Positions 22,840 through 60,242 of a DNA stretch of 64,000 bases are shown one piece after another (the stretch's first letter is position 1; every line of letters starts with the position of its first letter). The DNA comes from Miscanthus floridulus (lineage: Eukaryota; Streptophyta; Magnoliopsida; Poales; Poaceae). Position numbers and translations under genes: made by a program. The notes beneath the pieces were generated by a model that ran no database searches, was not told where the DNA came from, and saw nothing but the letters and a program-made list of their open reading frames with translations. The stretch spans positions 75,020,791 to 75,084,790 of the forward strand of contig NC_089584.1 of assembly GCF_019320115.1 (NCBI RefSeq). Reading direction: 5' to 3'.

Positions 22840-24301
22840 TATATAGAAAATGGACCTTAGGTCTATTTATTTTAGATTTTAGTGTTTGATGATCAACACA
22901 ACTAAATTGGACTAATGAATTTACAAGTAATTGTTTTGTAGTTCAATAGGGTGCAAGACGTGACTTGGACGAAGGCGACGTGATAATCCCACGATTAACA
23001 CCATAAGCAAGATCGTAGAAGCACAAGAGTAGATCCAAGACATCAAGCAAAGTCCAAGCACGAAGATAAAAACTAAGCCGGACACAAGATCACGAAGAAA
23101 CGAGCTTCACAGAGGTGACCGGACGCGGCCCTTATAAAACCGGATGCGTTTGATCAAGATGCTCGGCAACAGCAGGCGTCAGCAACAGCGACCGGACGCT
23201 AAGGATTAAAAGTGACCGAACGCTAGCGGATAATCGACCGGACGCAAGAACTGCAGCGTCCGATCGAGTCCAGAGAGGTTCTAGAGCGGCGACAGCACGA
23301 CCGGACGTGTCCGATCAACGCGCGCTCCAAAGGTCGAGACGACCGGACACGTCTGGTTAGGACGACAGCAGCATCCGGTCAGTAGTAGAAAGGTGGGTTT
23401 CATCCCCAATGACTACTTTCTTAGTGGGGCTTATAAATAGACCCCCAACCAGCCATTTGAGTAGAATGGAGCTGAGAAAACATATCAAGGGTGTTGATAC
23501 ATCATTTTAGTAATCTCCACTTGCATAGTACTTAGTGATTCATTGGGTGATTAGCGTAGGTGCTTTGCGAAGTACTTAGGTTGATTAGACCACCACTTAT
23601 GCGCTTACTCTAGGTTTATGCCTAGTGTTTAGTGAGGTTTGCACACCTCTTATCACTCGGTGCTTGCGCGCACCATTGTTGTATATCGAAGGAACTTGTA
23701 GTCTTGCGAGATCACATCAACCGTGTTTGTGGTGTGGCCGCTACCATATACCGAAGGGAACAAGGCTCATGGTGATTCGTCCGGAAGCTTGATAGTGAAG
23801 ACAGCGGAAAGCGATTCGGGAGAGGTTTGCCGGAAGGCACATCGGAGACCCACTTGCGCGTGGAGAAGGCCCGAAGCTATCTACAGAATTACCCAACCGG
23901 GAGTTTGGCCCTTGCGAGGGATTCCTTGTGAGGGGCTCCAACGAGGACTAGGGAAAGCTTGCGCGCTTCTCGATACCTTGGTAAAAATACCGGAGTCATC
24001 GATGGGAGTTTGTATATCTCTACCTTACTCTTTAGCTTCCGTATTTATATTACAATCTTGGTTTGTGCTTTACTTTTCTAGCTTACTGATAGACTAGTTG
24101 ATATGTTTAGAACCTAGGTTGCATAACTCCTTTTGCAGTAGAGATAGCAACATACTAGCAAAACCGTAGTTGCACATTTAGATAGTTTATCTTTTGCATA
24201 GGTTTTACTAAGGGTAGCAAAAGAGGGCATAAGTTTAGAGTTAGAGTTTTAAGTTGTCTAATTCACCCCCCCCCCCTTTTAGGCGTCGTGGTCCCCTTTC
24301 A
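22840..24301 (+). repeat. 5' LTR of the Copia element
   Basis: A 1462-bp repeat ending in CCCCTTTCA. It begins TATATAGAAAATGG, where the 3' copy has TGTAAGAAAAATGG, so the terminal TG has mutated to TA. It carries many GACCGGACG/CGTCCGGT words between 23110 and 23390. It lacks two segments, about 60 and 35 bp, present in the 3' LTR. A C-run of about 13 lies near its end. Confidence 0.9.
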
Positions 24302-26541: not shown

Positions 26542-28120
26542 GAAGTCCGATGGACTTTGGAGAATTTGGAGACTTGGCAAAGTATGGGTGCATTTCATGG
26601 GGTGCATCATTATGGACAAGGAAATTGCCAAGTGGGTTAGTGAATACTATGGAACCAAATTCCCCTCCCTATGATAGGTAACTAGATTTAATTTCTCACA
26701 ATTTCAATGAGCATCTAGTTCATTTTCATGCCTAGGTTTGCATTTGCATGTTTAATCTTTTGTCTTGCATACACTAGGTATATCTTATGGTAGGCTTGCT
26801 TGGTTTCATTCTTAACCCTTGGAGCAAACCTATATGGTTTAAATTGTTTAGGAGCACTGGCACATAGCTATGTTTTACAATTGTTTATCTAATATGTGCC
26901 AAAGTCTAAATTGTAGATAATTTCTCCCGAATATCACATCCGAAATGATTCTCACATTCATGTGATATCATCTTTCAAGTGGTATTTTTATCCTAAAATC
27001 AATGTGCATGTATCCTACAAGTATTTCATATTTGTGTGCACAAATTTAGGGGGAGGTTACTCTATAAGTTGGATGCTTTGAGACTAACACCATTTCAAGC
27101 TTATCATGCGTGTAGTAGTCTCATTGCAAGGAAAATGGAGTCCCTGGAGTTAAGCATCATACTTCAAATATCCACCACCCATTGCAAGTGGTATAAATCA
27201 AATTGGTTTCCACATGTGGTATTTCTAAACCGATATCATCATGTTGATTTCACTTTGGTATTTATATGCTTTTTCCATGTATTATATAGATTAAACTCCC
27301 TTGAGCATTAATTTGCCAATTATGCATAAACTACATTCTCCATCATATGCATGCATATATTTAGGGAGAGCTTAGTTTATGTAATGTGAGAGTCAAATTT
27401 TGTGACCTATTCCACTCCACATACAAAGGATCACAAAGTTTGACCCTCCCTTGTGCTACTAATGTCTTCCTTTTCGGTGTTTGATTCTAAAGGGGAAGAA
27501 TTTGTAGGACCAAAAGCAAGCCCGATCATAATAATTTACAAGTAGGTAATAGTCCGAGAAAGGGAGGATAGTGGATTATAGAGTTAGGGTGAGGCTTAAA
27601 TCCATAATACCATATGGGGACGTTTACAAGGGCAAGATAAGATTCCAAAGATGTTTACATGTGGCATCTCCATCATATGTATGCATATATTTAGGGGGAG
27701 CTTAGTCTATGTAACGTGAGAGTCAAATTTTGTGACCTATTTCACTCCACATACAAAGGATCACAAAGTTTGACCCTCCCTTGTGCTACTAATATCTTCC
27801 TTTTTGGTGTTTGATTCTAAAGGGGGAGAATTTGTAGGACCAAAAACAAGCCCGATCATAATAATTTACAAGTGTTAATGGTCTAAGAAAGAGAGGATAG
27901 TGGATTATGGAGTAGGGGGAGGCTTAAATCCATAATGCCACATGGGGATATTTGCAAGGACAAAATATGTTTTCAAAGATGTTTACATGTGGTATCTTTT
28001 AGCATCATATAACCTTGCCCTTTGCATTGCATCCTAGCAAGTAAATAATTTCTAAAATTCCAAAATTTTTATTATTTGCTTATGTTTGGTCGTGTTGTCA
28101 TCAATCACCAAAAAGGGAGA
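26542..28120. other. Non-coding interior of the Copia element
   Basis: AT-rich sequence where pol would be expected. I find no RT, integrase or protease motifs. It contains a tandem duplication (27340-27998) and a polypurine tract, AAAAAGGGAGAGA, just before the 3' LTR. Confidence 0.75.
27340..27998 (+). repeat. Tandem duplication, 330-bp unit, two copies
   Basis: Copies start CCATCATATG at 27340 and 27670 and both end GATGTTTACATGTGG(C/T)ATCT. They share a block of GGGGGAGAATTTGTAGGACC type and AGTCAAATTTTGTGACCTAT. Differences are few, so the duplication is fairly young or homogenised. Confidence 0.9.
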
Positions 28121-28123
28121 GAT

Positions 28124-29679
28124 TGTAAGAAAAATGGACCCTAGGCCCATTTACTTTGAATTTTAGTGTTTGATGACCAACACAACCAAATTGGACTAAC
28201 ACATTTGCAAGTAATTATTTTGTAGTTCAATAGGATGCAAGACGTGACTTGGATGAAGACAACAAGATGATCCCACGATCAACACCATAAGCAAGACCCT
28301 AGAAGCACAAGAAGAGAAGATCCAAGATATCAAGCAAAGTCCAAGCACGAAGATTAGAAATCAAGCCGGATGGAAGATCGCGAAGAAATGAGCTTCATAG
28401 AGATGACCGGACGTGGCCCTTATAGCGACCGGACGCGGCCGATCAAGATGCTCGGCAACAGTAGGCATAATCAGCAGCGACCGGACGCTGAGGACTAAAG
28501 GTAACCGAACACGATGATGGCACTGTTCATCATCTCGGCAACACATTCAGCACTGACCGGGACGCTGGCAGATAATCGACCGGACTTAGGAGCTGCAGCG
28601 TCTGATCGAGTCCAAAGAGGTTCTAGAGCGGCGACAGCGTGACCGAACGTGTCCGATCAACTAGTGACCGGACTCAACAGTGCGTCCGATCAACGCACGC
28701 ACTCCAACGGTTGGGACGACCGGACGCGTCCGGTTAGGACGACAACAGCGTCCGGTTAGTAGCAGAAAGGTGGGTTTCGTCTCCAACGGCTACTTTCTCA
28801 ATGGGACTTATAAATAGACCCCCCAACCGGCCATTTGAGTAGAGTGGAGCTGAGGAAACATACCAAAGGTGTTGATACACCATTTTAGTAATCTCTACTT
28901 GCATAGTGTTTAGTGATTCATTGAGTGATTAGCGTTGGTGCTTTACGAAGTGCTTAGGTTGATTAGACCACCTGCTTATGCGTTTGCTCTAGGTTTAGGC
29001 CTAGTGTTTAGTGAGGTTTGTACACCTCTTATCACTCGGTGCTTGCGCACATCATTGTTGTACATCGGAGGGGCTTGTAGTCTTATGAGATCACACCAAC
29101 CGCGTTTATGGTGTGGCCGCCACCGTGTACCCAAGGGAACAAGGTCCGCGATGGTTTGGCCGGAAGCTTGATAGTGAAGACGGCGGGGAGCGGTCTGAGA
29201 GAAGTTTGCTGGAAGGCACATCAGAAATTCACTTGTGCGTGGGGAAGGCCCGAAGCTATTCCATGGAGTTACCTGACCGGGAGCTTAGGCCCTTGCGAGG
29301 GATTCCTTGCGATGGAGCTCCAACGAGGACTAGGGGAAGCTTGCGCGCTTCTCGATACCTCGATAAAAATACCGGAGTCATCGACGGGAGTTTGCATATC
29401 TCTACCTTACTCTTTTGCTTCCACATTTACATTACAATCTTGGTTTGTGCTTTACTTTCCTAGCTTAGTGATATGCTAGTTGATAGGTTTGGAACCTAGG
29501 TTGCATAACTCTTTTTGCGGTGGAGATAGCAACATACTAGCAACACCGTAGTTTCACATTTAGATAGTTTATCTTTTGCATAGATTTTGCTAAGGATAGG
29601 AAAAGATGGCATAAGTTTAGAGTTAGAGTTTTAAGTTGCCTAATTCACCCTCCCTCTTAGACGTTACGATCCCCTTTCA
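28124..29679 (+). repeat. 3' LTR of the Copia element
   Basis: A 1556-bp repeat with TG...CA ends, matching the 5' LTR throughout. Two indels account for the length difference: an extra stretch near 28505-28560 and one near 28655-28690. It has the same GACCGGACG-rich zone. Confidence 0.9.
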
Positions 29680-44369: not shown

Positions 44370-44706
44370 TCTTAGATCTGGTTTGGGATTGGAGGCGGAA
44401 GTGCATGTGAATCTGGAAGTGCGAGTGCTGAGGAGGAAGATAAAACAGCAAAGTGGCAAAGGTGGGAGCGTGGGGTGCTGCGGCATAGTTATAAAGCACT
44501 CCCCCCACCTTTCGCATTCGAGGGATTTTGGGAAATCGCTCCATGATTTACGCTCCTCCAAATTCTCTACAACAGCGTGGTGGGCTGTTACCTGGGCTTT
44601 CGCGCAACTGCAGCCCGTATCGCCCATTTATCGCCGTAATTTGTTATTGCTCACTGAATATTCACCGACTTCACCGTCATCTGTTACGGCTCAGTAATTA
44701 CTACTG

Positions 44707-47700
44707 TGTAACACCCTAGGTGTTTGGCTTCTACAAAAGTGCATTTCATTTCATAAACATGTGTATCATCCATCTCATCATGCCATTGTCACTGAAACAT
44801 ACATATGCAACATTCGCAATTCTGTTTGTTTCATACTTGATTTGCTTGTGAATGGTAGTAGTGCAACATGTGAATGCAACATGAGTTTCTCATACCTTGA
44901 AACATGGCAACATGGTAGGAATGTGGCAAGTTAAAATTGCAACAAAAGTAATGAAACATGTGAAACATGGAATTGCAACATTTGAGTGAATTGATTATTT
45001 TGTTGCTTCATCACATGTGATCATTAGAAATTGGTATAGCACTTGTGTAAAGTGGTTGATAATGGTCTAATACACCTTAACTACACTTAGGGTAATTGTT
45101 GGGACATTGTTCATGTGGATCAAAATGACAAAAATGCCCTCAAGTGGAGGTTTGAATTAGAAAGACCTACAGAGTGCCACTGTTTGACCGATTCAAAAGA
45201 CCAACCTAGAGACCTTGCATGGCTGTGCACCCTTTACGAAAGTTGTAGCCAATTTATCAAGGAACAAAAGTCTCAATATGACCATCTCATGAAAATGGCT
45301 AGAACATGTTCAAACAAGGCCCACAAGTCATATTTCCATGCTGAATTCACACTTAGAAAATTTGCTAAGTCATAAACCCAGTTTCAGTTGGATCGAGCCA
45401 ACTTTGGCTTGATGTAACTTCTGATCCATGGCGAATTAGATGATGGTCCTTGAAAAGAAGTTGTAGATGGATGGTAGGCCTACAATTTTCATGTACATTG
45501 TTTTTGCAATGGATCAACGGTTTAGCCGTATTAAAATGTTGAAGTCGCACTGTCAGGCGGTTCCAGTTGTCTGAATGTGAGCTACAGTAACTGACAGCCA
45601 TCAGACAATGAACGCTACGTGGGTGACACTCGTCGCCAGTCTCCTGCTCATGCTACCACGTGCCATGGACGCCCTGGCACGGCCAGCCACGACTTGAGCA
45701 ACACCCCACGTGCCTGCCCGACCGAGTCGTCAGCTTCATTTGCATCTCCTTCGCCTCTACCGCGCGCAGCACCGAAGCCGCCGCAGCTCCTACATTTCTG
45801 ACCGAGCTTCGCCATCACCTCACGCGCTCGCCACTAGAAAAACGCGTCAGCCATCTTGTCCCTAGCTTCGTCGTGATCTCCTCTACCACCTCCACCTCTC
45901 AGCTGGGTCGATTGGGGCTTGGTAAGGGCGTATTCGTCATTTCTTCCACCGCCGTCATGGCGGGACCTCGCCGGAGTTGGCGCTTCACATGGCCAACTAC
46001 CACTGCGGACTCCCTATCCTCTCTATCTTGCTTGGGTAGCTTGATAGCAAACTACGGAAGCTCGTACCGAGCCTATCCGCGTCCTACGTGGTCAGACCTC
46101 GCCGAAGCTGGCGTAGCCGTGGCCGTGCGCCGCCATGGCCGTCGCCATTGCCTTTAGCTGCGGCAATAGCTTCAATTGATGGCACCACTAGATGCGCATG
46201 GGTGAGGCGAATACCGTAGCACCGATGGCCTCGCTAGAGCTGCCACCGGTGACGAGCTACGCCACCGTCTTTTCTTCCTCCCCTGCCTGTCTCTCTATCT
46301 CGCGGGGTCCCTTTGTCAGTCGCTGAGCCAAGGCGGGAGCCAGTGTGGGCCGCATCGTGTCTAGGCCATGCCAGCGCATGCATCGCGGGCCACCGTGTCC
46401 TTCGGGCTGGCCCAACAGTAGAGTTAGGGTTTCAAATTCGTTTTGGTTTTATTCTTTTCACAGATTTGTGTATATATTCAAAAATATGTATCTCCTAGTT
46501 GGTAGATTCAAATGATGTGGTTCCAATTTTGTTGAGTTCATGATAATGTCTAGTTTATATTAAAAATATAATTTATGCCAAGTTCTGTTATGAAAAATGG
46601 AGTTGCTAATTATCTCTTTTAATCATGAAGAAAATAGGGGTAATTATATCTTTTTCTATGTAGCACCAAATGGCATGAAATTTTTATGGTGTACTGCTCA
46701 TGTCATGAATAGCTTGTAGTTAAATTTTCATACATTTTGGACACTGTATGTAGGAGTTAGAAAATTCTCTTATTTGCATGGATGGATCTTGTGTGAATTT
46801 TCATAATTTTTCTATAGATCCAGTAAAGGTAAAAATTGGTGAGTGCTATTCTTATGCTATAGTGATACTAGGAAAAATAAGAAATCTGTTGCTTGACACT
46901 TTTCAATTGGGTTTCCTAATTATGCTAGAAATAGACATGCCCTCTATTATTTTTGATACAACAAGTTTTGCTTAACCAATGGCTTTGAAATTGTTATGGT
47001 AGTATATGTGAAGCATGAGATAGCTACTGTAATTTTTGTAGATTTTTTTTGAACAGTTTTACTATATATTGCTTTAATCACCTAATTAACTAAATAAATT
47101 AGAAAAGGACATTAAATAATTTATTTAGAGGTTGGCACTATACTTTCTGATATTCCTCTGGTATGTGCAACAAGTTGGTAAACTTGGTTTGGTCCAATTA
47201 TGCTTTTGCATCATCACTAAATAATTAATTTAGTAAACCTGTCATTTCTGGACATATTTTAGGTTTACTGGAATTCAATTTGGTTAACGTAAGAATCATG
47301 CTTTGATGTTTACAAGTGAATTGTAGAGAATTTCATAAGCTTTCCAGAATGTCCTCTTGCAAGTCATTTAGATTTGTAGAACTCTTGTTGTGATTGAATT
47401 AAGGAACTACCCGTGTGCATATGAAACTTCTGTTGTTTTAAGTATGCCTTTACTATTTCTAAGTTTGTGGTAATGTTCCTAGGTGTTAGGTCTTTAACTG
47501 AAGATGAGCATCTTTATCTTAGGTTATGCAAGTTAGGTAAGTTGATCTTGTTCTTCAAGTTAAGATAGATACATGTTTTAAAGTGATTTGAATAGAGCTA
47601 TTCTTAATCGGTAAACGAGTGTCCAGTGATGCTTTCGTTAAACACTTACTGTGATTCATTCATCATGAGCATTATGTCATTCCTTATGCATCCATCATAT

Positions 47701-49385
47701 TTATCTTATGCATCAACATGCAATAGGTGTACCGGAGGGTGTGACACTGCTGGAATTCGAGGAACCAAGCGGGGAGCAGCAGTAGCCAACACCAGAGGTT
47801 CAGGAGGTGCAGCCCTCAGGAGAAATGCCAGACGAGGTCGCCGTTGAGTGCCCGGATCACCGTCCATGCAACTTTGTGAAAGGCAAGCCCCGGAGCATAT
47901 TAAGCCTCCAAATTTCTAAAATGCAGTTAAAGTATTATTGTTATATATATATATATTGTTGCATTAAGTTTAGGTGTTGGATGCAAACATTTGCTACATT
48001 GGTTATCTAATCCTTGTCCAGATATTGATACACTGAATCCTATGTAGCTCTGCTTCATGTAGTGCTTAGCCCTGCTTAAACGCGGTAGAAGTCGGGTGAT
48101 TTCCTGTCACCTACGAGATATAGGAATATACATATGGCACGGTTGGCTATATTTGCTATCGTGGAAAAGAACCTGGCTTAATTTGAATTGAAGACCGGGC
48201 GGAGGCTTGCCGGTTTGCAGTGACTCCGTCTGTGTCGCTTAAGGACTAAATCTTGGAGCCTTTCCTGTTCATGTTGAACGCATGCCTCTCTCTTAGTTGG
48301 TCGTGTCTGAAGACCGACCACAAAGCCGAGTAGCTCACCTTAGGCCAGGAGTCGATAAGTATAAAGTACGCCTCAGAAGGGAGCCGTAGGCATGAGTCCA
48401 AGGGCAGGTGATTTAAAAGTCCTGATCGTCCTGGCAGAAGGGTAATCCCTGAGAGTGCTAGCGCTGATCGAACCTGCGAATTTGGTTTCTGAGTTGTTCC
48501 AAAGGTGACCCACGGCTACCCTTGCAAAGTATGCCAGGGTGAGAGTTAGGAATACCCCCTCAGCTGAGTTGTAATTTGATTCGAGTCGCCGTCTCTCCCG
48601 GTTAGTGAGAACTTGACGGGCTTATCTCCAATGTAGATACACTAAATAACATAATGGTTCAGAAATAATGATATGATGATGACAGCCTTATTATACCTGC
48701 TATGGTTAGTATTGTTTGCTCCTAATAAGTGAGTGCTCTAGTACAGGTGCAAATCTAGTGGACAGGTAAATGATGATCAACTTGATGCGAAGTTTAAATG
48801 GGTTACTATATTCATAAGCTCTTTTATGCAACTGTGTCTAGCTAGCCCACCTCATAAGCCTTGCATGACCCTTGGTGTCTTTTATTTCTGGTTTTGATGG
48901 GTAAGTCTAGCTGAGTACCTTCTCGTACTCAGGGTTTATCTCCCACCTATTGTAGATGACCAGTTCTACTTTGGTTGCTACAAGTATTGCCTTCTCCTGG
49001 CTGGGGATGAAGACTAGACCATTGGGCGCAGTCTCTCGTAGTTCTCATACCTGATGATGCTTTTGTGGGACATGACTCAGATTTGGCAATGTATCTGAAA
49101 TTATGAAGTTATGTACTAAACTATGTTGCTTCCGCAAATTTGAACTTGGTTTGTAATATTTTATTTAAACTCTGATGGATGTAATCCGAATGCTACTTGT
49201 GAAATGTTGTAACGAATAATGTGTTGTGTTAAATCACTACGATCTTGGTTTGTATGTCGAGAGTTGGTTGAAATCCTTCGTGATTTCTGAACTACCAGGA
49301 TTATGGGAGCTTAAGTACATGAATTTGATCACTTCGGTGATTGTTTTTGTACTTACGTTCTTATGATTTGGTCGGTTCTGTTACA
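44707..49385 (+). repeat. 5' LTR of Gypsy element 3 (4679 bp)
   Basis: TG...CA ends (TGTAACACCC; GGTTCTGTTACA). The LTR contains a GC-rich zone (45600-46430) with ORF-like stretches, a long AT-rich centre, and a 3' part with the CTTCTCGTACTCAGGGTTTA block. It is matched along its whole length by the 3' LTR. ORFs in it start at non-AUG codons or are low-complexity, so I annotate none as genes. Confidence 0.92.
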
Positions 49386-49387
49386 GC

Positions 49388-49399
49388 TGGCATCAGAGC
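49388..49399 (+). other. Primer binding site of Gypsy element 3
   Basis: TGGCATCAGAGC lies two bases past the LTR, one base different from the initiator tRNA-Met complement TGGTATCAGAGC, and is typical of chromoviruses of this type. Confidence 0.85.
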
Positions 49400-49646
49400 A
49401 AGATTTGACACTAAACATATCATTTGTGTATTTAAAACAAAAGTATTTGTGAAAATCCTAAATTAAATACTAAGTATTGCTAGTGGTCATATCCCTTATG
49501 CCCAAATAAGGACTCTTAGGTGGCTTATTAAAGTACTAACTTGGGGGTTCCTGCTTGTTTCTGTTTCATTATCCATACGGCATGCTATTGTATGGATGCC
49601 ATCTGCTTGGGTGGTAATGTATGGATCAAAGTACCTCTACGCTCTG

Positions 49647-49652
49647 GTAAGT
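49647..49652 (+). promoter_or_regulatory. Candidate splice donor in the leader of Gypsy element 3
   Basis: CTG followed by GTAAGTGAG is a near-consensus plant 5' splice site, about 260 bases after the LTR. Acceptor-like AGs lie immediately before the ATGs of the accessory ORF (50141) and of gag (51152). Prediction only. Confidence 0.45.
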
Positions 49653-50141
49653 GAGAGTTGTGAGAGCATGACCGTCCAACCGTCGGTCTAGGGGAGAGTA
49701 GTTGTGGTTGCTCGCATACTTACATGTTCAATCATGTATCTATAAGAGTACTTAAGTGTGGGTATCTTTGTCGGGTAGCTGTGATACTAGAATATATACA
49801 TCAAGGGGATGTATGTACGAAAGTATTTAGTTTACTGCTTACTTTACATGCATTTTGGGAAAGTATTGGGCTGAAATGAAATTTTCTGCAGGTACACTAA
49901 CAACGTATCGTTGTAGAACGACTAGCTACCGTATACGAGAGGACGTATGTATGCCACCATATATTTCGCTAGCCTTTAAATTTTTATAGGTTTGTGAGGA
50001 CGTACGGGTCGTGCATGCATCATGTTCAAGCATACATAGCATTTTTTGCATTACTCCCTCCTTTAAAATTGATGGTCTCGACTAATTAAATTTTGTATCC
50101 CTTAAATGATTCTCCCCTTACGTTGCAACTTTTTGCTACAG

Positions 50142-50738
50142 ATGGCGCGCATGAAACGCACTGCTCGCAAGTCCGCTGGAGGCAGGGCGCCTCATCACCG
50201 ATTAGCTCCTCGTGAGCCCCGTCCGGAGCCTACTAAGGCGGAAAGGCTGAGGGCATTGCTGGCCCGGGTGACTACTGAGAGGAATGTGGCTCAGCACTGT
50301 TTGGAGCAAGTAACACAGGAATAGGACCAAGAGACCCTGGAGGTTCAGAGGTTGATAGTTGCTCACCGCAACTGTGAACGTATGTTGATTCATGTGCTAA
50401 ACCAATGGAATGAAGCTAGGCACAAGGAGAATGTGTTGAGAGCGCGACAGGTAGAACTAGAGCAGCAGTTGGCAGCTGTCGAAGAGTACAATGACCATCT
50501 CCATGAGGAGGTTCACCTGTTACACAATCAGCTTCACCCTCTCCTACCACCTAATGAAGAGAATGACAATGAGGATGAGATGGGCTCTGGTGTCATCATG
50601 GTTGAAGGTGATGATGACATTGAGGTTAATGGACCTGAGGACATTCCACCTGAAGAGGAGGAAGATGAGGAGTTAGAGCCTGCTAGTGATGAAGATGGAG
50701 GAGAGATCTTCGACACTGACTCTGAGGACGATGCGTAG
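50142..50738 (+). CDS. Accessory ORF with histone-H3-tail-like N-terminus and acidic C-terminus
   Basis: A frame of 198 codons, open apart from one TAG at codon 61 (50322-50324). Residues 1-17 read MARMKRTARKSAGGRAP, identical to the histone H3 start at 13 of 17 positions; Lys4, Arg8, Lys9 and Ser10 equivalents are kept, Lys14 is Arg. Residues about 25-130 are charged and helical, with a probable coiled coil (RQVELEQQLAAVEEY and following). Residues about 139-198 are extremely acidic, ending GGEIFDTDSEDDA. The ATG sits directly after TTTTTGCTACAG, an acceptor-like site. There is no histone fold. It lies in sense between leader and gag, so it is probably expressed with the element. I do not recognise the family and infer no function; an H3-tail mimic or histone-binding protein is possible. 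Confidence 0.65.
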
Positions 50739-51152
50739 TTTAGCTTACTACTTAGCTAATGCGCTAGAGCTAGTCTTTTGTTGATCCTCATGCATGAACG
50801 AGTAGCTTATAATAAGTTAATCATTGGGATGTAATATCAAACCTTAAGTTACCTTTGATGTCAGTTTGGAACCTCTATGGCCTAGATGTAACCTATCAAA
50901 CATGTTGTGCTCCACGTATGTGAGGCTTTGATAATTTCCGTCTATGCGGTCTATCGATCTCGTTGTTGGTTAAGTTCATCGCATTAATGTGTCAATTGAT
51001 GCGCTTGATGAGTTGTGTGATTGTGATGGATGATTGTGCCTCTGTTGATTATATAAATGCATTCTCTCCAATGGAATCAGTTTGGCATAATTATACAATT
51101 CATCTACAAAAATTTCCACATCGTCAGTGCTCATTGGCTATACATTTTGCAG
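50739..51152 (+). other. Spacer between accessory ORF and gag of Gypsy element 3
   Basis: T-rich sequence without coding features, ending in CATTTTGCAG directly before the gag ATG. Its composition is intron-like. Confidence 0.5.
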
Positions 51153-52155
51153 ATGGCTTATAACCTTCATCGCGGTCGTAGCATGGGAGATGAGGAACAA
51201 CCACCTCCTCCACCGCCCACCCTAGCTGAGCTAATGCAGACAATCGTCGAAAGTCAGCGCATGCTAGCTGAGGCTATGCACCAACTGGCTAATCGTGATG
51301 ACCGACATGTCCGCCAGGGACCCGAGCCAAACCAGTATAGCAGCTTTAAGGACTTCATGGACACAAAGCCTCCTATCTTTCGAGAGGCAGAAGAACCATT
51401 ACAAGCTGATGAATGGTTGAGTACGATAGAGCAAAGGTTTGGATTGCTCCGATTGACAGAAGGTATGAAGGCCTTGTATGTAGGACACCAGCTCCAAGGC
51501 CCTATAGGCATCTGGTGGACCCATCATAGGACCACCTTCCCTGCAAACGTCGAGATAGTTTGGGACCAGTTCCAGACAGCTTTCCGGGGACATTTTATCC
51601 CTCCTGGTCTCATGGCCATTAAGCATACTGAGTTTATGAAGCTAACCCAAGGTAACAAGAGTCTTAATGAATACCTGCAGGCATTTAACAACCTAGCGAG
51701 GTATGCTCCCGAGTTCGTTGATACTGACGCCAAAAAGATAGCTAGCTTCAAGAGGGGACTTTCCCCTAAACTGATGAAGTCTATGGGCAACTGCAAGTGT
51801 GTCACCTTTAATGAGTTTATCAGTGACACCCTGACTCAGGAGAATAATGATAAGGTGTATGCTGCTTCCAAGACCTGTAAAAGAAACTTTGAGGCGGGTG
51901 CTTCTCAGTCTAAAGCACCAGTGGTATCTAAAACCTAGTATCGTCCACCTAATGCTAATGTCCGGTACCGCCCACCTCAGAAGAAGAATCAAGCTAAAAA
52001 CTAGTTTTCGCAGGGGGTATACAATTTCCTTGCCAAAGAATACCTCTAGGCAGGGCAGCTCCAATGTTCCGCCAGCAAACAGGCCGTGCTGGAACTGTAA
52101 CCAGCCTGGTCACTGGGCTAATAAGTGTCCCTATCCTTCCAAGCAGAATGCTTAG
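51153..52155 (+). pseudogene. gag of Gypsy element 3
   Basis: From ATG at 51153: MAYNLHRGRSMGDEEQ, a Pro run, a helical segment (LAELMQTIVESQRMLAEAM), then the Retrotrans_gag core. That core has PPIFREAEEPLQADEWLSTI, YVGHQLQGPIGIWWTHHR, WDQFQTAFRGHFIPPGLM, EFMKLTQGNKSLNEYLQAFN and YAPEFVDTDAKKIASFKRGL. It is open for 262 codons to TAG at 51936, with another TAG about 70 bases on. A CCHC zinc knuckle follows in a shifted frame (CWNCNQPGHWANKC, 52080-52130). Gag forms the particle and binds element RNA. The capsid core is intact and the nucleocapsid is cut off by stops. Confidence 0.88.
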
Positions 52156-52810
52156 GGAAACGTCCATCAGGGGTGTGTTCACTACACTACTATGGAGGAA
52201 ATTCCTGCTGGTGAAGTGGTCACTGCTGGTAAGTTCCTCGTTAATGATCACCCTATCGTTGTGCTCTTTGATTCAGGTGCTTCACATCCTTTGTGAGTTC
52301 TACTTTTGCATCTATGCATAAGATGAATGTGATTACAATTGTCAAGGGTGGTTATTATATTAGTGCTGCTGGGAATAATATCATGACTAACCAAGTAGTT
52401 AAATATGTAAAGATTGATATTGGGATTGAGAGTTCCTTGCAGATCTAGTAGTTCTACCAGGGGTAGGAATCGATGTAATCCTAGGAATGAAGTGGATGAG
52501 CGAGAATGGAGTGTTGATTGATACATCAACCTGTGTGGTAATGTTGAGAGATCCTATGGATAAGAAGGGTTTTCTAGTGCAGTTACCTTGTGATATCGCT
52601 ATCCACAATATAGCCAATGCTACCCTAGCCAAAGCCATTGAAGATATACCAGTTGTCTGTGAGTTTCCAGATGTCTTCCCTAATGACTTGCCTGGATTAC
52701 CTCTAGACCATGAAGTAGAATTCAAGATAGAACTCATTCCGAGTACAGCTCCTATTTCTCGAAGGCCCTATAGAATGCCGCCCAATGAGTTGGCTGAGCT
52801 AAAGATTTAG
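52156..52810 (+). pseudogene. Protease and start of reverse transcriptase, Gypsy element 3
   Basis: The protease active site reads VVLFDSGASH at about 52255-52287, followed by a likely one-base deletion that breaks the frame. YYISAAGNNIMTNQV is in a second frame. From 52487 the frame [17 protein letters not shown] leads into [17 protein letters not shown] and the RT entry [16 protein letters not shown], ending at TAG 52808 where Gln is usual. The protease would cut Gag-Pol; it is broken here. Confidence 0.8.
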
Positions 52811-54135
52811 TTGAATGAGCTATTAAAGAAAGGTTTGATTCAGCCTAGTTCTTCTCCTTGGGGTTGTCCGGCTATCTTTGTGAAGAAGAAGGACGAGTCT
52901 CTACGCATGTGCGTGGATTATCGCCCCCTTAATGCTGTTACCATCAAGAACAAATATCCTCTTCCTCACATCGATATTCTGTTTGATCAGCTCTCTAAAG
53001 CTAAGGTATTCTCCAAGATCGATTTGAGGTCTGGCTACCATCAGATCAAAATTCGTCCTGAAGATATACCTAAGACAGCTTTCTCTACTCGTTATGGCTT
53101 GTTCGAATACCTTGTCATGTCCTTTAGGTTAACAAATGCTCCGACACACTTTATGTACCTAATGAATTCGGTATTCATGCCGGAATTGGACAAATTCGTC
53201 GTCGTGTTCATTGATGATAACCTTGTATATTCTCAGAATGAAGAAGAGCATACTGAACATCTGAGAATTGTGTTAACTCGATTACGTGACAACCAGCTTT
53301 ATGCTAAGTTCAGCAAGTGCGAATTCTGGTTAAACAAGATACCTTTTCTAGGTCATGTGTTATCTGGAGATGGAATTTTGGTTGACCCTACTAAGGTGCA
53401 AGAAGTCCTAGATTGGAAGGCACCTACTATGGTCATAGAAGTCCGAAGTTTCCTAGGTTTGGCTGGCTATTATTGTCGCTTTATCCTGGATTTCTCAAAA
53501 ATCGCCAAACCCATGACTCGCCTACTTCAAAAGGATGAGAAGTTTGTGTGGACTCTGAAGTGTGAAGAGGCTTTCCACACTTTGTGGACCTTACTAACCT
53601 CTGCTCCTGTATTGGCACAACCTAACATCGAGAAGCCTTTTGATGTCTACTATGATGCATGTGGCACCGGTTTGGGGTGTGTTCTTATGTAGGAGGGCCG
53701 AGTCGTTGCTTATGCTTCGCGCCAGCTTTGAAAGCATGAAATCAATTATCCTACCCATGACTTAGAGCTAGCCACGGTTATTCATGCCCTGAAGATTTGG
53801 AGACATTACTTGCTTGGTAATGTGTGCAACATCTATACTGACCATAAAAGTCTCAAGTACATCTTTACGCAACCCGAGTTGAACATGCGTCAACGATAAT
53901 GGTTAGAATTAATCAAAGACTACAACCTTCAAGTGCACTACCATCCTGGCAAGGCAAATGTGGTTGCTAATGCCTTAAGCAGAAAGGCCTATTGCAATTC
54001 CTTAGTTAGTGAAGACTTTCATCTAGCACACCTCCTTCATCTTGTAGTACTCCACAATATCACTGTGGATTGCTCTCTTAGAAGTCGAATTATCGAACTG
54101 CAGAAGACTGATGTGGGTGTGTTTCACATCAAGTA
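52811..54135 (+). pseudogene. Reverse transcriptase and RNase H, Gypsy element 3
   Basis: A 293-codon open piece has all RT blocks: [71 protein letters not shown], the catalytic FIDDN box (53207-53221; FIDDI is usual), and thumb/connection [20 protein letters not shown]. RNase H starts [17 protein letters not shown], is stopped by TAG 53690, then continues RVVAYASRQL, stop, [26 protein letters not shown], and ends NVVANALSRKA. It makes DNA from element RNA and removes the template. Asn after the catalytic aspartates is unusual but not necessarily inactivating. Confidence 0.88.
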
Positions 54136-54139
54136 GAAG

Positions 54140-55520
54140 ATGAAAGAGCAAGAGACCAAGCACTTTAGGGTCAATGACAAAGGAATTCTCTGGTTTAATG
54201 ATAGGCTTGTAGTACCCAAAGACAAAGAACTTAGAAATCAAATTATGGCTGAAGCCCATTCTTCTAGATTGTCCATCCATCCTGGTAGCAGTAAAATGTA
54301 TCAAGATCTCAAGCTGTATTATTGGTGGACCAAGATGAAGAAAGAAATCGTAGCCTACGTGGCAAGGTGCGATAACTGTTGCAGAGTCAAGGCTATTCAC
54401 ATGAGGCCCGGATTATTACAACCACTCTCTATTCCTGGCTGGAAGTGGGAAGAAATTGTCATGGATTTCATTGTTGGATTACCCACTACCAAAAAGGGTT
54501 GTGATTCCATCTGGGTTATCGTAGATCATCTAACTAAATCCGCTCACTTTATTCCGGTCAAGTCTACCTATCACCCTCACAATTATGCTGAGATTTATTT
54601 TCAACAAGTGGTACGTCTCCATGGTGTACCCAAATCCATTATTTTAGATAGAGGACCGCAATTCACGGCTCGCTTTTGGGAGTGCTTACATCAGAATCTT
54701 GGCACTCATCTAATCTGCAGTTCTGCCTATCATCCGCAAACATCAGGATAGACTGAGCATGTTAATCAAATTCTTGAAGACATGCTTAGAGCTTGTCTTA
54801 TCTCTTGCAAAGGCTCTTGGGAGGAATGGTTGCCTCTCGCTGAATTCTCTTATAACAACAGTTATCAAGAGAGTATCAAAATGGCTCCTTTTGAAGCTCT
54901 TTATGGCCACAAGTGTAGAACACCTTTAAACTGGGTGGAACCCAGAGAAAGAAGATTCTATGGTATTGATTTTGTAAAGGAAGCCGAAGAGCAAGTCCAA
55001 ACTATCTAGAAGAATATGACTGCCGCATAGGCTAGACAAAAGAGCTACGCTGATAAGAGAAGAAAACCTATTGAGTTTGAAGTAGGTGACCATGTTTATC
55101 TGAAGGTATCCCCTATGAAAGGAGTAAAACATTTTGGAATTAAAAGGAAGCTTGAGCCTCGATATGTTGGACCTTACCAAATTATCAAGAAAAGTGGAAG
55201 AGTAGCCTATAAACTCAATCTACCATGTGAAATGGGAGCTATATTCCCGGTATTCCATGTGTCTCAGCTGAAGAAGTGTCTCCGTATTCCTGAGGAAAGA
55301 GTAGCTACGAGGAGAATCAACTTGAAATCTGATCTTTCTTATGAGGAGAAGCCTGTGCAGGTTCTGGATACTCAAGAAAGAGTGACTCGTAGATGAGTAG
55401 TTAAGTTATATAAGGTAGTTTGGAGTAATCATAGTGATCGGGATGCAACCTAGGAGCGGGAAGATTATCTAAAGGAAAATTATCCGGCTTTCTATATTAA
55501 ATGGTACGCTTTCCAAATCT
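54140..55520 (+). pseudogene. Integrase with chromodomain-like tail, Gypsy element 3
   Basis: The zinc finger starts HPGSSKMYQDLKLYYWW with CDNCCRVK closing the HHCC set. The catalytic core has MDFIVGLPTTKKGCDSIWVI, SIILDRGPQFTARFW and the third acid near TEHVNQ; TAG stops stand at 54749, 55007 and 55028. The GPY/F module is KLEPRYVGPYQII. After it comes a degenerate chromodomain (VVKLYKVVWSNHSDRDAT, stop, EREDYLKENYPAFYIK). In chromoviruses this tail steers integration to heterochromatin by reading histone marks. It is the part of the element that could connect with the H3-like accessory ORF. Confidence 0.88.
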
Positions 55521-55537
55521 TGGGACAAGATTTTTTT

Positions 55538-55551
55538 TAAGGGGGGAGGGC
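55538..55551 (+). other. Polypurine tract of Gypsy element 3
   Basis: AAGGGGGGAGGG directly before the 3' LTR, the expected primer site for plus-strand DNA synthesis. Confidence 0.85.
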
Positions 55552-58500
55552 TGTAACACCCTAGGTGTTTGGCTTCTACAAAAGTGCATTTCATTTCATA
55601 AACATGTGTATCATCCATCTCATCATGCCATTGTCACTGAAACATACATATGCAACATTCGCAATTCTGTTTGTTTCATACTTGATTTGCTTGTGAATGG
55701 TAGTAGTGCAACATGTGAATGCAACATGAGTTTCTCATACCTTGAAACATGGCAACATGGTAGGAATGTGGCAAGTTAAAATTGCAACAAAAGTAATGAA
55801 ACATGTGAAACATGGAATTGCAACATTTGAGTGAATTGATTGTTTTGTTACTTCATCACATGTGATCATTAGAAATTGGTATAGCACTTGTGTAAAGTGG
55901 TTGATTATGGTCTAATACACCTTAACTACACTTAGGGTAATTGTTGGGACATTGTTCATGTGGATCAAAATGACAAAAATGCCCTCAAGTGGAGGTTTGA
56001 CTTAGAAAGACCTACAGAGTGCCATTGTTTGACTGATTCAAAAGACCAACCTAGAGACCTTGCATGGCTGTGCACCCTTTACGAAAGTTGTAGCCAATTT
56101 ATCAAGGAACAAAAGTCTCAATATGACCATCTCATGAAAATGGATAGAACATGTTCAAACAAGGCCCACAAGTCATATTTCCATGCTGAATTCACACTTA
56201 GAAAATTTGCTAAGTCATAAACCCAGTTTCAGTTGGATCGAGCCAACTTTGGCTTGATGTAACTTTTGATCCATGGTGAATTAGATGATGGTCCTTGAAA
56301 AGAAGTTGTAGATGGATGGTAGGCCTACAATTTTCATGTACATTGTTTTTGCAATGGATCAACGGTTTAGCCGTATTAAAACGTTGAAGTTGCGCTGTCA
56401 GGCGGTTCCAGTTGTCTGAATGTGAGCTACAGTAACTGACAGCCATCAGACAACGAATGCCGCATGGGTGACACTCGTCACCGGTCTCCTGCTCATGCTG
56501 CCACGTGCCGCGGACGCCCTGGCATGGCTGGCCACGACTTGAGCAACACCCCACGCGCCTGCCCGACCGAGTCATCAGCTTCATTTGCATCTCCTTCGCC
56601 TCTACCGTGCATAGCACCGAAGCCACAGCAGCTCCTCCATTTCTGACCGAGCTTCGCCATCACCTCGCATGCTCGCCACTTGAAAAACGCGTCAGCCATC
56701 TTGTCCCTAGCTTCGTCGTGATCTCCTCTACCACCTCCACCTCTCAGCCGGGTCGATTGGGGCTTGGTAAGGGCGTATTCACCATTTCTTCCACCACCGC
56801 CATGGCAGGACCTCGCCGGAGTTGGTACTCCACGCGGCCAACTGCCACCGCGGCCTCCCCATCCCCTCTTCCTTGCTTGGGTAGCTTGATAGCAAACTCT
56901 AGAAGCTCGTACCGAGCCTATCCGCACCCTACGGGGTCGGACCTCGCCGGAGCCGGCCAAGCCGTGGCCGTGCGCCGCCATGGCCGTCGCCATTGCCTTT
57001 AGCCACGGTAATAGCTTCAATTGATGGCATCGCTAGATGCGCATGGGTGAGGCGAATACCATAGCACCGATGGCCTCGCTAGAGCTGCCACCGACGACGA
57101 GCTACGCCGCCGTCTTTTCTTCCTCCCCTGCCTGTCTCTTTGTCTCGCGGGGTCCCTTTGTCAGTCGCTGAGCCAAGGCGGGAGCCAGTGTGGGTCGCGT
57201 CGTGTCTGGGCCACGCCAGCACGTGCATCGTGGGCCACCGTGTCCTTCGGGCCGGCCCAGCAGTAGAGTTAGGGTTTCAAATTCGTTTTGGTTTTATTCT
57301 TTTCACAGATTTATGTATATATTCAAAAATATATATCTCCTAGTTGGTAGATTCAAATGATGTGGTTCCAATTTTGTTGAGTTCATGATAATGTCTAGTT
57401 TATATTAAAAATATAATTTATGCCATGTTCTGTTATGAAAAATGGAGTTGCTAATTATCTCTTTTAATCATGAAGAAAATAGGGGTAATTATATCTTTTT
57501 CTTTGTAGCTCCAAATGGCATGACATTTTTATGGTGTACTACTCATATCATGAATAGCTTATAGTTAAATTTTCATACATTTTGGACACTATATGTAGGA
57601 GTTAGAAAAATCTCTTGTTTGCATGGATGGATCTTGTGTGAATTTTCATCATTTTTCTATAGATCCAGTAAAGGTAAAAATTGGTGAGTGCTATTCTTAT
57701 GCTAGAGTGATACTAGGAAAAATAAGAAATCTGTTGCTTGACACTTTTCAATAGGGTTTCTTAATTATGCTAGAAATAGACATGCCCTCTATTATTTTTG
57801 ATACAACAAGTTTTGCTTAACCAATGGCTTTGAAATTGTTATGGTAGTATATGTGAAGCATGAGATAGCTACTGTAATTTTTGTAGATTTTTTTGAACAG
57901 TTTTACTATATATTGCTTTAATCACCTAATTAACTAAATAAATTAGAAAAGGACATTAAATAATTTATTTAGAGGTTGGCACTATACTTTCTGATATTCC
58001 TCTGGTATGTGCAACAAGTTGGTAAACTTGGTTTGGTCCAATTATGCTTTTGCATCATCACTAAATAATTAATTTAGTAAACCTGTCATTTCTGGACAGA
58101 TTTTAGGTTTACTGGAATTCGATTTGGTTATTGTAAGAATCATGCTTTGATGTTTACAAATGAATTGTAGAGAATTTCATAAGCTTTCCAGAATATCCTC
58201 ATTCAAGTCATTTGGATTTGTAGAACTCTTGTTGTGATTGAATTAAGGAACTACCCGTGTGCATATGAAACTTTAACTGTTGTTTTAAGTATGCCTTTAC
58301 TATTTCTAAGTTTGTGGTAATGTTCCTAGGTGTTAGGCCTTTAACTGAAGATGAGCATCTTTATCTTAGGTTATGCAAGTTAGGTAAGTTGATCTTGTTG
58401 TTCAAGTTAAGATAGATACATGTTTTAAAGTGATTTGAATAGAGCTATTCTTAATCGGTAAACGAGTGTCCAGTGATGCTTTCGTTAAACACTTACTGTG

Positions 58501-60237
58501 ATTCATTCATCATGAGCATCATGTCATTTCTTATGCATCCATGATATTTATCTTGTGCATCGGCATGCAATAGGTATACCGGAGGGTGTGACACTGCTGG
58601 AATGCGAGTAACCAAGCGGGGAGCAGCAGCAGCCAACACCGGAGGTTCAGAAGGTGCAGCCCTCAGGAGAAGTGCCAGACGAGGTCGCCGTTGAGTGCCC
58701 GGATCACCGTCCATGCAACTTTGTGAAAGGCAAGCCCCGGAGCATATTAAGCCTTCTAATTTCCAAAATGCAGTTAAAGTATTATTATTATATATATATA
58801 TATTGTTGTATTAAGTTTAGGTGTTGGATGTAAACATTTGCTGCATTGGTTATCTAATCTTTGTCTAGATATTGATACCATAAATCCTATGTAGCTCAGG
58901 TTCATGTAGTGCTTAGCCCTGCTTAAACGTGGTTGAAGTCGGGTGATTTCTTGTCACCTGTGAGATATAGGAATATACATATGGCACGGTTGGCTATATT
59001 TGCTATCGTGGAAAAGAACCTGGCTTAATTTGAATTGAAGACCGGGCAGAGGCTTGCCGGTTTGTAGTGACTCCGTCTGTGTCGCTTAAGGACTGAATCT
59101 TGGAGCCTTTCCTATTCATGTTGAACGCATGCCTCTCTCTTAGTTGGCCATGTCTGAAGACCGACCATGAAGCCGAGTAGCTCACCTCAGGCCGGGAGTC
59201 GATAAGTATAAAGTGCGCCTCGGAAGGGAGCCGTAGGCGTGAGTCCAAGGGCAGGTGATTTAAAAGTCCTGATCGTCCTGGCAGAAGGGTAATCCCTGAG
59301 AGTGCTGGCGCTGATCGAACCCGCGAATTTGGTTCCTGAGTTGTTCCAAAGGTGACCCACGGCTACCCTTGCTAAGTATGCCAGGGTGAGAGTTAGGAAT
59401 ACCCCCTCAGCTGAGTTGTAATTCGATTCGAGTCGCCGTCTCTCCCGGTTAGTGAGAACTTGATGAGGTTATCTCCAATGTAGATACGCTAAATAACATA
59501 ATGGTTCAGAAATGATGATATGATGATGATAGCCTTATTATACCTGCTATGGTTAGTATTGTTTGCTCCTAACAAGTGAGTGCTCTAGTACAGGTGCAAA
59601 TCTAGTGGACAGGTAAATGATGATCAACTTGATGCGAAGTTTAAATGGGTTACTATATTCATAAGCTCTTTTATGCAACTGTGTCCAGTTAGCCCACCTC
59701 ATAAGCCTTACATGACCCTTGGTGTCTTTTATTTCTGGTTTTGATGGGTAAGTCTAGCTGAGTACCTTCTCGTACTCAGGGTTTATTTTCCATCTATTGC
59801 AGATGACCAGTTCTACTTTGGTTGCTACAAGTATTGCCTTCTCCCGGCTGGGGATGAAGACTAGACCATTGGGCGCGGTCTCTCGTAGTTCTCATACCTG
59901 ATGATGCTTTTGTGGGACATGACTCAGATCTGGCAATGTATTTGAAATTATGAAGTTATGTACTAAACTATGTTGCTTCCGTAAATTTGAACTTGGTTTG
60001 TAATATTTTATTTGAACTCTGATGGATGTAATCCGAATGCTACTTGTGAAATGTTGTAACGAATGATGTGTTGTGTTGTGTTGAATCACTACGATCTTGG
60101 TTTGTATGTCGAGAGTTGGTTGAAATCCTTCGTGATTTCTAGACTACCGGGATTATGGGAGCTTCAGTACATGAATTTGATCACTTCGGTGATTGTTTTT
60201 GTACTTACGTTCTTATGATTTGGTCGGTTCTGTTACA
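55552..60237 (+). repeat. 3' LTR of Gypsy element 3 (4686 bp)
   Basis: Collinear with the 5' LTR, with scattered single-base changes and very small indels (for example TTGTGTTGTGTTG near 60070). The TA-repeat stretches, the GC-rich zone and the TACTCAGGGTTTA block are all present. Confidence 0.92.
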
Positions 60238-60242
60238 TACTG

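What the first reader, a model, noticed from the sequence alone, without database searches (positions are those of the whole stretch)
50142..50738. Transposon accessory ORF that starts like histone H3 (MARMKRTARKSAGGRAP)
Seen: the first 17 codons of an ORF between leader and gag of a 4.7-kb-LTR Gypsy element match the histone H3 N-terminus (MARTKQTARKSTGGKAP) at 13 of 17 positions, including the ARKS motif of H3 K9 and the K4 equivalent. No histone fold follows. Known: chromoviruses of the Tekay type carry an integrase chromodomain related to readers of methylated H3, and ARKS is the target motif of H3K9 methyltransferases. Inference: the protein could be methylated like H3 and bound by chromodomains, either the element's own or the host's, as a decoy or targeting aid. 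I do not know this ORF from published families.
Basis: partly seen in the sequence, partly recalled or inferred. Interest (0 to 1): 0.9.

Follow-up and report, generated by a model that had tools for sequence, protein, structure and literature searches.

The report
Retrotransposon protein wearing histone H3 tail
A many-copy family of plant jumping genes carries an accessory protein that begins with a close copy of the histone H3 tail, probably taken from a host histone gene and kept by selection, which suggests that the element imitates chromatin to handle the plant's silencing machinery.

Summary
The window copy matches H3 at 13 of the first 17 residues (15 of 22), but its frame is broken by a TAG at codon 61. 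It is a decayed member of a many-copy family in a 2.68-Gb plant genome. Of 204 retrieved proteins (partly fetched by the tail itself) 104 carry the tail, with H3 K4 kept in 101 and K9 in 102.

A second many-copy ORF0 family in the same genome has a different middle but an even closer tail: L135 reads MARTKQTARKSTGGRAPRHQLAP. Of 18 such copies read, 16 keep H3 residues 1-13 unchanged and 17 have 19-20 of 22 identities. Between the families the tail gives dN/dS of about 0.14, so it is not drifting.

Nine intron-type host H3 genes read have a 24-codon first coding exon; in three it starts directly after CAG, as ORF0 does, and ORF0's H3 likeness ends near codon 24. The second family shares up to 57 of 66 nt and exact runs of 26-29 nt with such genes. 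Capture of an H3.3-type exon is the best origin. Function as an H3-tail mimic is inferred: a silencing decoy is most likely, targeting aid or nuclear import the rivals.

The parts
44707..49385 (+). 5' LTR (4679 bp), preceded by target-site repeat TACTG 44702-44706
49388..49399 (+). probable primer binding site TGGCATCAGAGC (resembles the initiator-tRNA-Met type; recalled)
   Evidence: sequence
49647..49652 (+). candidate 5' splice site GTAAGT in the leader
   Evidence: splicing itself not shown
50106..50141 (+). 36 nt in frame upstream of the tail (MILPLRCNFLLQ if unspliced), preceded by TAA, ending in the candidate 3' splice site TTTTTGCTACAG
50142..50213 (+). H3-like tail, 24 codons, same length as the first coding exon of nine intron-type host H3 genes
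50214..50543 (+). coiled-coil part of ORF0, broken here by TAG at 50322-50324; in the unbroken relative P0012 residues 32-134 are predicted as one long helix
50544..50738 (+). acidic C-terminal part (30 D+E, no K or R in 64 residues) and stop
51153..51938 (+). gag, also starting directly after a candidate 3' splice site (TTTTGCAG|ATGG)
52487..55497 (+). decayed pol: RT, RNase H, integrase by Pfam, then a type-II-like chromodomain region judged by eye; several stops
55552..60237 (+). 3' LTR, followed by target-site repeat TACTG 60238-60242

Best explanation
ORF0 of this Tekay-like Ty3/Gypsy element is a conserved accessory protein that displays a copy of the histone H3 N-terminal tail on a coiled-coil body with an acidic end. 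The tail most likely entered an ancestral element as the 24-codon first coding exon of a host H3.3-type gene, and purifying selection has kept it while the rest of the protein changed. After removal of the first Met it would present A1-R2-T3-K4...R8-K9-S10 as a free N-terminus, twice per molecule if the helix dimerises, while the acetylatable lysines K14, K18 and K23 are mostly replaced by R or H. I think it engages host writers or readers of the H3 tail and acts mainly as a decoy that weakens or redirects the H3K9me2/CHG-methylation silencing of the element (for example SUVH4 and CMT3-type proteins; pathway recalled). Shown here: sequence identity, recurrence, selection, DNA likeness of the second family to intron-type H3 exons, predicted helix. 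Inferred: Met removal, dimerisation, nuclear location, methylation, binding, decoy action.
For: Tail in 104 of 204 proteins; in these K4 is kept in 101, K9 in 102, S10 in 102, while K14 is R in 99 and K18 is H in 99. Second ORF0 family: 26 loci read, 25 with the ATG; of the 18 of the abundant type 16 keep H3 1-13 unchanged and 17 have 19-20 of 22. Median dN/dS of the 21 tail codons: 0.14 short vs long, 0.15 short vs P0203 type, 0.18 P0203 type vs long; Fisher p of the median pair 2e-4, 9e-4, 0.017. Within the short family (93 copies) transversions seen in one copy are 62 changing to 14 silent, those in five or more copies 13 to 10, Fisher p 0.024. Exon anatomy: nine of nine intron-type H3 genes read have AAG|GT after codon 24, three of them CAG directly before the ATG. 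Long type: up to 57 of 66 nt shared with an intron-type H3 gene; 26-nt exact run, p 0.001-0.002 against random synonymous codons for L127 and L134. AlphaFold2 of P0012: one helix 32-134, tail and acidic end disordered. Two of two long-type loci tested lie upstream of a gag 60-62% identical to the window's.
Against: No binding, methylation, localisation or expression data. DNA likeness to H3 is weaker elsewhere: short family silent sites p 0.05-0.15, and 0.8 under H3 codon usage; P0203-type copy L125 p 0.10 and 0.19; for the long family only uniform codon choice was used as control. Upstream introns show no clear likeness (2 of 27 comparisons, window against the near-identical genes L103 and L104, reached the maximum of 60 shuffles; one more reached the 95% level). 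A cross-species test against upstream sequence was inconclusive. Three of 104 proteins have R at K4 and two have N at K9. AAA/AAG codons escape CpG decay, so their invariance among dead copies proves little.
Confidence: 0.5

Rival explanations
1. Targeting aid: the tail is modified like H3 and bridges the integration complex to chromatin readers (or to the element's own type-II chromodomain), steering insertion.
For: Type-II chromodomains have no known partner (PMC6317226, PMC3350952, passages). In sunflower the Tekay group with a 5'aORF inserts mostly in chromosome arms while two groups without it are centromere-biased (PMC11728184, passages), though that aORF showed no amino-acid similarity to grass ones.
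Against: Type-II chromodomains lack the first and usually the third aromatic cage residue. No evidence that ORF0 meets integrase or gag.
Confidence: 0.25
2. Nuclear import signal: the tail is used only as a basic H3-type import signal, with K>R changes keeping charge while escaping acetylation.
For: Basic tail (9 K/R, 2 D/E in residues 1-31 of the window copy); K14 and K23 replaced mainly by R. Grass 5'aORF proteins are predicted nuclear (PMC11728184, section 2.5 read). Import of H3 by karyopherins is recalled.
Against: Import signals tolerate much change (recalled), but H3 1-13, including non-basic T3, Q5, T6, T11, G12, G13, is unchanged in 16 of 18 long-type copies, and tail dN/dS is near 0.14.
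Confidence: 0.15
3. Convergence rather than capture: the H3-like tail arose stepwise under selection for mimicry, without a histone gene as donor.
For: Silent sites of the short family and of L125 do not prove DNA descent; upstream introns are not convincingly alike.
Against: 26-29 nt exact runs in several long-type copies and 13 silent matches of 18-20 in L127 and L134; 24-codon exon limits and CAG|ATG.
Confidence: 0.12
4. Chance likeness or passive drift in a dead copy, with no function of the tail.
For: The window copy itself is broken; CGN, ACG and GCG codons are decaying.
Against: Recurrence, second family, dN/dS.
Confidence: 0.03

Closest known systems
ORF0 / 5'aORF of grass Tekay-type elements (Retrosat2, RIRE3, RIRE8, ZMsat2, Sorsat2, maize Tekay, Sb7; PMC3485330, PMC11728184)
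   Same: Extra ORF upstream of gag-pol in a Ty3/Gypsy element with long LTRs; long helix; function unknown.
   Different: The word histone occurs in neither main text (term searches); PMC3485330 found ORF0 sequence-divergent and offered enzyme-like predictions.
Viral histone H3 mimics with ARKS-type motifs (PMC10208167; only the search listing with the start of the abstract seen)
   Same: Foreign protein carrying an H3-tail motif; proposed interference with host chromatin.
   Different: Here 22-24 residues at a true N-terminus, probably a captured exon, in a plant retrotransposon family. For SARS-CoV-2 ORF8 the mimic role is disputed (PMC10833455, search listing only).
Host histone H3 genes of the intron type (H3.3-like; label recalled)
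   Same: First residues and 24-codon exon length.
   Different: No histone fold; K14, K18, K23 mostly changed; coiled coil and acidic end instead.

Membership tests
Tekay-clade Ty3/Gypsy element | Paired LTRs with target-site duplication | tested here: met
   95.8% identical LTRs, TACTG repeat
Tekay-clade Ty3/Gypsy element | Order gag-RT-RNaseH-integrase | tested here: met
   Pfam hits in order in four frame pieces
Tekay-clade Ty3/Gypsy element | Type-II chromodomain at integrase C-terminus | tested here: inconclusive
   Motif-like region seen by eye, broken by stops; no profile search made
Tekay-clade Ty3/Gypsy element | RT phylogeny | not tested
   No reference set used
Grass ORF0/5'aORF family | Sense ORF between leader and gag, LTRs above 3 kb | tested here: met
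Grass ORF0/5'aORF family | Sequence homology to published ORF0 proteins | not testable with these tools
   Published sequences not available here
Histone H3 | N-terminal tail sequence | tested here: met
Histone H3 | Histone fold | tested here: not met
   No histone family in Pfam scans; P0012 modelled as one long helix
Histone mimic | H3-tail motif kept by selection | tested here: met
Histone mimic | Modified by H3 enzymes or bound by H3 readers in the nucleus | not testable with these tools
   needs bench work
dsRNA-binding protein (long ORF0 only) | DRBM profile match | tested here: not met
   No DRBM in the Pfam scan of one long ORF0, L134; PMC11728184 reports only weak structural likeness for maize and sorghum ORF0

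The most novel reading that the evidence does not exclude
A lineage of grass retrotransposons captured the first coding exon of an H3.3 gene and turned it into a dedicated histone-tail mimic: a probably dimeric, hardly acetylatable H3 tail that is methylated at K9 and soaks up or reroutes the H3K9me2-CHG methylation loop, so that the element blunts its own silencing.
Probability: 0.35. Interest if true: 0.96.

Novelty: new variant of a known kind. Interest (0 to 1): 0.9.

Why it matters
Extra ORFs of plant LTR retrotransposons have no known function, and the partner of type-II chromodomains is unknown. A conserved H3 tail at the start of ORF0 makes both questions directly testable. It would be a case of histone mimicry by exon capture in a transposon, and could help to explain how such elements multiply in genomes that silence them through H3K9 and CHG methylation.

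Tried and rejected
Led nowhere: scans of viral contigs and genome contigs with P0012 matched patterns (20 and 147 stretches) but none encoded a relative. Foldseek against PDB found no match for the ORF0 model. Pfam gave nothing above a curated cut-off for short, long or P0203-type ORF0 (only weak coiled-coil-like hits). H3.3-intron likeness upstream of ORF0 was tested and not convincingly found. Silent-site likeness of the short family to H3 genes was not significant (four copies asked, L071 not in the row set, three answered). The cross-species comparison of tail and upstream change was inconclusive (258 pairs; tail medians 4-6 of 21 residues against a neutral mean of 7.7, P of 4 or fewer 0.07). 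Splicing could not be inferred from database proteins that start at MARTK, because gene callers choose starts freely. One search timed out and was rerun smaller. In one search five copies were asked for the longest-run test and four answered; L020 (23 nt, p below 1/1500) was picked after seeing its T at H3 T11, so that p is optimistic.

Considered and rejected: that the H3-like residues drift freely; that the window frame is an intact ORF.

Selection of rows: copies came from the best 150 scored of 10287, 10922 and 10370 first-look candidates; candidates are not copy counts. 70 loci were fetched (30 automatically, 40 chosen by me), 30, 26 (6 automatically, 20 chosen by me, 8 of these for their long open frames). 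Identical rows were dropped before counting (70 to 68; 100 to 93; 60 loci of 3 kb or more to 57). One search took tails with ATG directly after AG and at least 13 of 22 identities, which left out one of 26 loci (L126). The transversion test leaves out those in 2-4 copies (5 changing, 3 silent).

Full report
What is in the window. The element lies at 44702-60242: two LTRs of about 4.68 kb (44707-49385, 55552-60237; 95.8% identical over 4687 columns) inside a perfect TACTG repeat. Gag, reverse transcriptase, RNase H and integrase follow in order; pol has several stops. Between leader and gag, 50142-50738 encodes MARMKRTARKSAGGRAPHHRLAP..., 13 of 17 and 15 of 22 identical to H3. The frame is closed by TAG at codon 61, 50322-50324, so this copy cannot make the full protein. 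The window sits in a genome of 2,684,536,002 bases in 2420 contigs; that size, with C1-C19 looking chromosome-sized, suggests Miscanthus (inference; no call names the organism).

Relatives. A protein search with X at the stop found 219 proteins at E up to 0.01, of which 120 were listed. Two more searches, made with the N-terminal parts of diverged relatives, brought the set to 204. Of these, 104 carry an H3-like start with at least 10 of 22 identities; since two searches used that part, this is not a population frequency. The other 100 are mostly fragments beginning inside the coiled coil, with a few shifted, deleted or cut starts (P0192, P0196, P0201, P0202). Identities to H3 1-22 run from 11 to 19, with 58 of 104 at 17 or more. 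K4 is kept in 101, K9 in 102, S10 in 102, G13 in 101, L20 in 103. K14 is R in 99 and K18 is H in 99. R at K4 occurs in three and N at K9 in two. T11 is kept in 51 and Q19 in 56. At least one such lineage is probably not of this species: P0081 finds no better than 74% among the 150 places scored here.

Own-genome copies. In 68 distinct copies, K4, K9, G13, P16 and L20 are unchanged in the 67 that align there; much of the variation sits in CGN, ACG and GCG codons and looks like CpG decay. Of 93 distinct copies, 30 keep 17 or more of 22 residues. Of 49 copies without gaps to the window frame, 13 have no stop; these were chosen by score, so this is not a genome estimate.

A second ORF0 family. Two database proteins, P0203 and P0204, carry the tail on another body. 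Searching the own genome with P0203 gave 150 scored matches out of 10370 candidates, most about 70% identical over residues 3-91, with open frames up to 363 residues. I read 26 loci, 20 of my choosing. 25 have the ATG, each directly after AG. In the 18 of the abundant type, 16 keep H3 1-13 unchanged and 17 have 19-20 of 22 identities (the other has 18); for example L135 reads MARTKQTARKSTGGRAPRHQLAP. The eight P0203-like loci have 13-18 of 22. The long protein (L134) continues with a domain without Pfam match above cut-off, then a coiled coil and acidic end related to the window ORF0 (63% over 57 residues). Two of two long-type loci tested are followed by a gag 60-62% identical to the window's; of four P0203-like loci two showed a partial gag match (51-57%) and two none. 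The long protein searched against PDB again hits histone H3 through residues 1-24 (E 4e-6).

Selection. For 21 tail codons, Nei-Gojobori counts give median dN/dS of 0.14 for 92 short against 18 long copies (1656 pairs), 0.15 for short against 7 P0203-type copies, 0.18 for P0203-type against long, and 0.11 for six little-decayed short copies against long. Fisher p for the median pairs is 2e-4, 9e-4, 0.017 and 3e-4. Within the short family, transversions found in one copy are 62 changing to 14 silent (ratio 4.4; 5.5 expected from opportunity), while those in five or more copies are 13 to 10 (p 0.024). In the tail the only shared changing transversion is at codon 6 (R/L, H3 Q5). A comparison across species against upstream sequence was inconclusive.

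Origin. The own-genome H3 search (97 matches) found intronless H3 genes and intron-type genes whose first coding exon covers residues 1 to about 25. Nine intron-type genes were read: in nine of nine, codon 24 is followed by GT; in three (L103-L105) the ATG directly follows CAG, in two (L101, L102) TAG, in four neither. ORF0 also begins directly after (C/T)AG (G at 50141 in 55 of 57 copies), and its H3 likeness ends at codon 22-24. The long family shares up to 57 of 66 nt with the intron-type gene L102 and exact runs of 26 nt (29 in L141) with such genes. Against random synonymous codons p is 0.002 or less for L127 and L134 and 0.01-0.03 for L133 and L135, but 0.10-0.19 for the P0203-like L125. 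For the short family the silent match is not significant, while run tests of three ordinary copies give p of 0.008-0.03. Upstream introns are not convincingly alike: 2 of 27 comparisons, with near-identical genes, reached the maximum of 60 shuffles. I conclude that capture of an H3.3-type exon is likely, not proven.

Anatomy and mechanism. AlphaFold2 on P0012 with 22 sequences predicts residues 32-134 as one helix, most of it above pLDDT 90, and disordered ends; Foldseek finds no PDB match. The last 64 residues of the window protein hold 30 acidic and no basic residues. The simplest reading is an oligomeric rod that shows H3 tails. K4 and K9 are kept while K14, K18 and K23 are mostly changed, which fits a tail meant to be methylated or read but not acetylated. 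I favour a decoy for H3K9me2/CHG silencing; a targeting aid and a nuclear import signal are the rivals. Dimerisation, nuclear location, modification and binding are inferred. The leader has a candidate donor GTAAGT (49647) and both ORF0 and gag start at a candidate acceptor, so ORF0 may be made from a spliced RNA; this is unproven.

What is known. Grass Tekay-type elements have an ORF0/5'aORF of unknown function (PMC3485330: outline, sections on origin and on ORF0, passages; PMC11728184: passages and section 2.5). The word histone occurs in neither main text, nor in that of PMC7264820 on additional ORFs. Searches of the held library for histone mimics with retrotransposons, for ORF0 with histone H3, for ARTKQTARKS with transposons, for the H3 tail with chromodomain elements, and for the tail letters showed no report of this feature in the listings seen (one search found 0 papers). 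Several of these lists were capped (15 shown of 218 and of 10,521), and only open-licence papers are held, so this is not proof of absence. Type-II chromodomains lack cage residues and have no known partner (PMC3350952, PMC6317226, passages).

Noticed in passing
window 51150-51158 and 50139-50144: Both gag and ORF0 start exactly after CAG, with a GTAAGT in the leader (49647), suggesting alternative splicing of one leader to two ORFs.
   Followed up: partly
L127-L134: The long ORF0 has a central domain (about residues 30-145 in L134) without Pfam match; PMC11728184 reports weak DRBM-like structure for maize and sorghum ORF0.
   Followed up: partly
window 23596-24231 and 28975-29613: A second pair of direct repeats about 5.4 kb apart (85-91% identical), perhaps another LTR pair.
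   Followed up: no
window 27337-27543 and 27667-27873: A 207-nt direct repeat pair, 96% identical, start to start 330 nt.
   Followed up: no
ORF0 codon 59 in own-genome copies: 18 of 49 ungapped copies share a stop at codon 59, 10 at codon 103, 7 at 102; may mark passenger sublineages or recurrent decay.
   Followed up: no
P0126, P0161, P0175 (tail position 5): Three database proteins read MARTRT..., with R at H3 K4 while K9 is kept, which may separate the roles of the two lysines.
   Followed up: no
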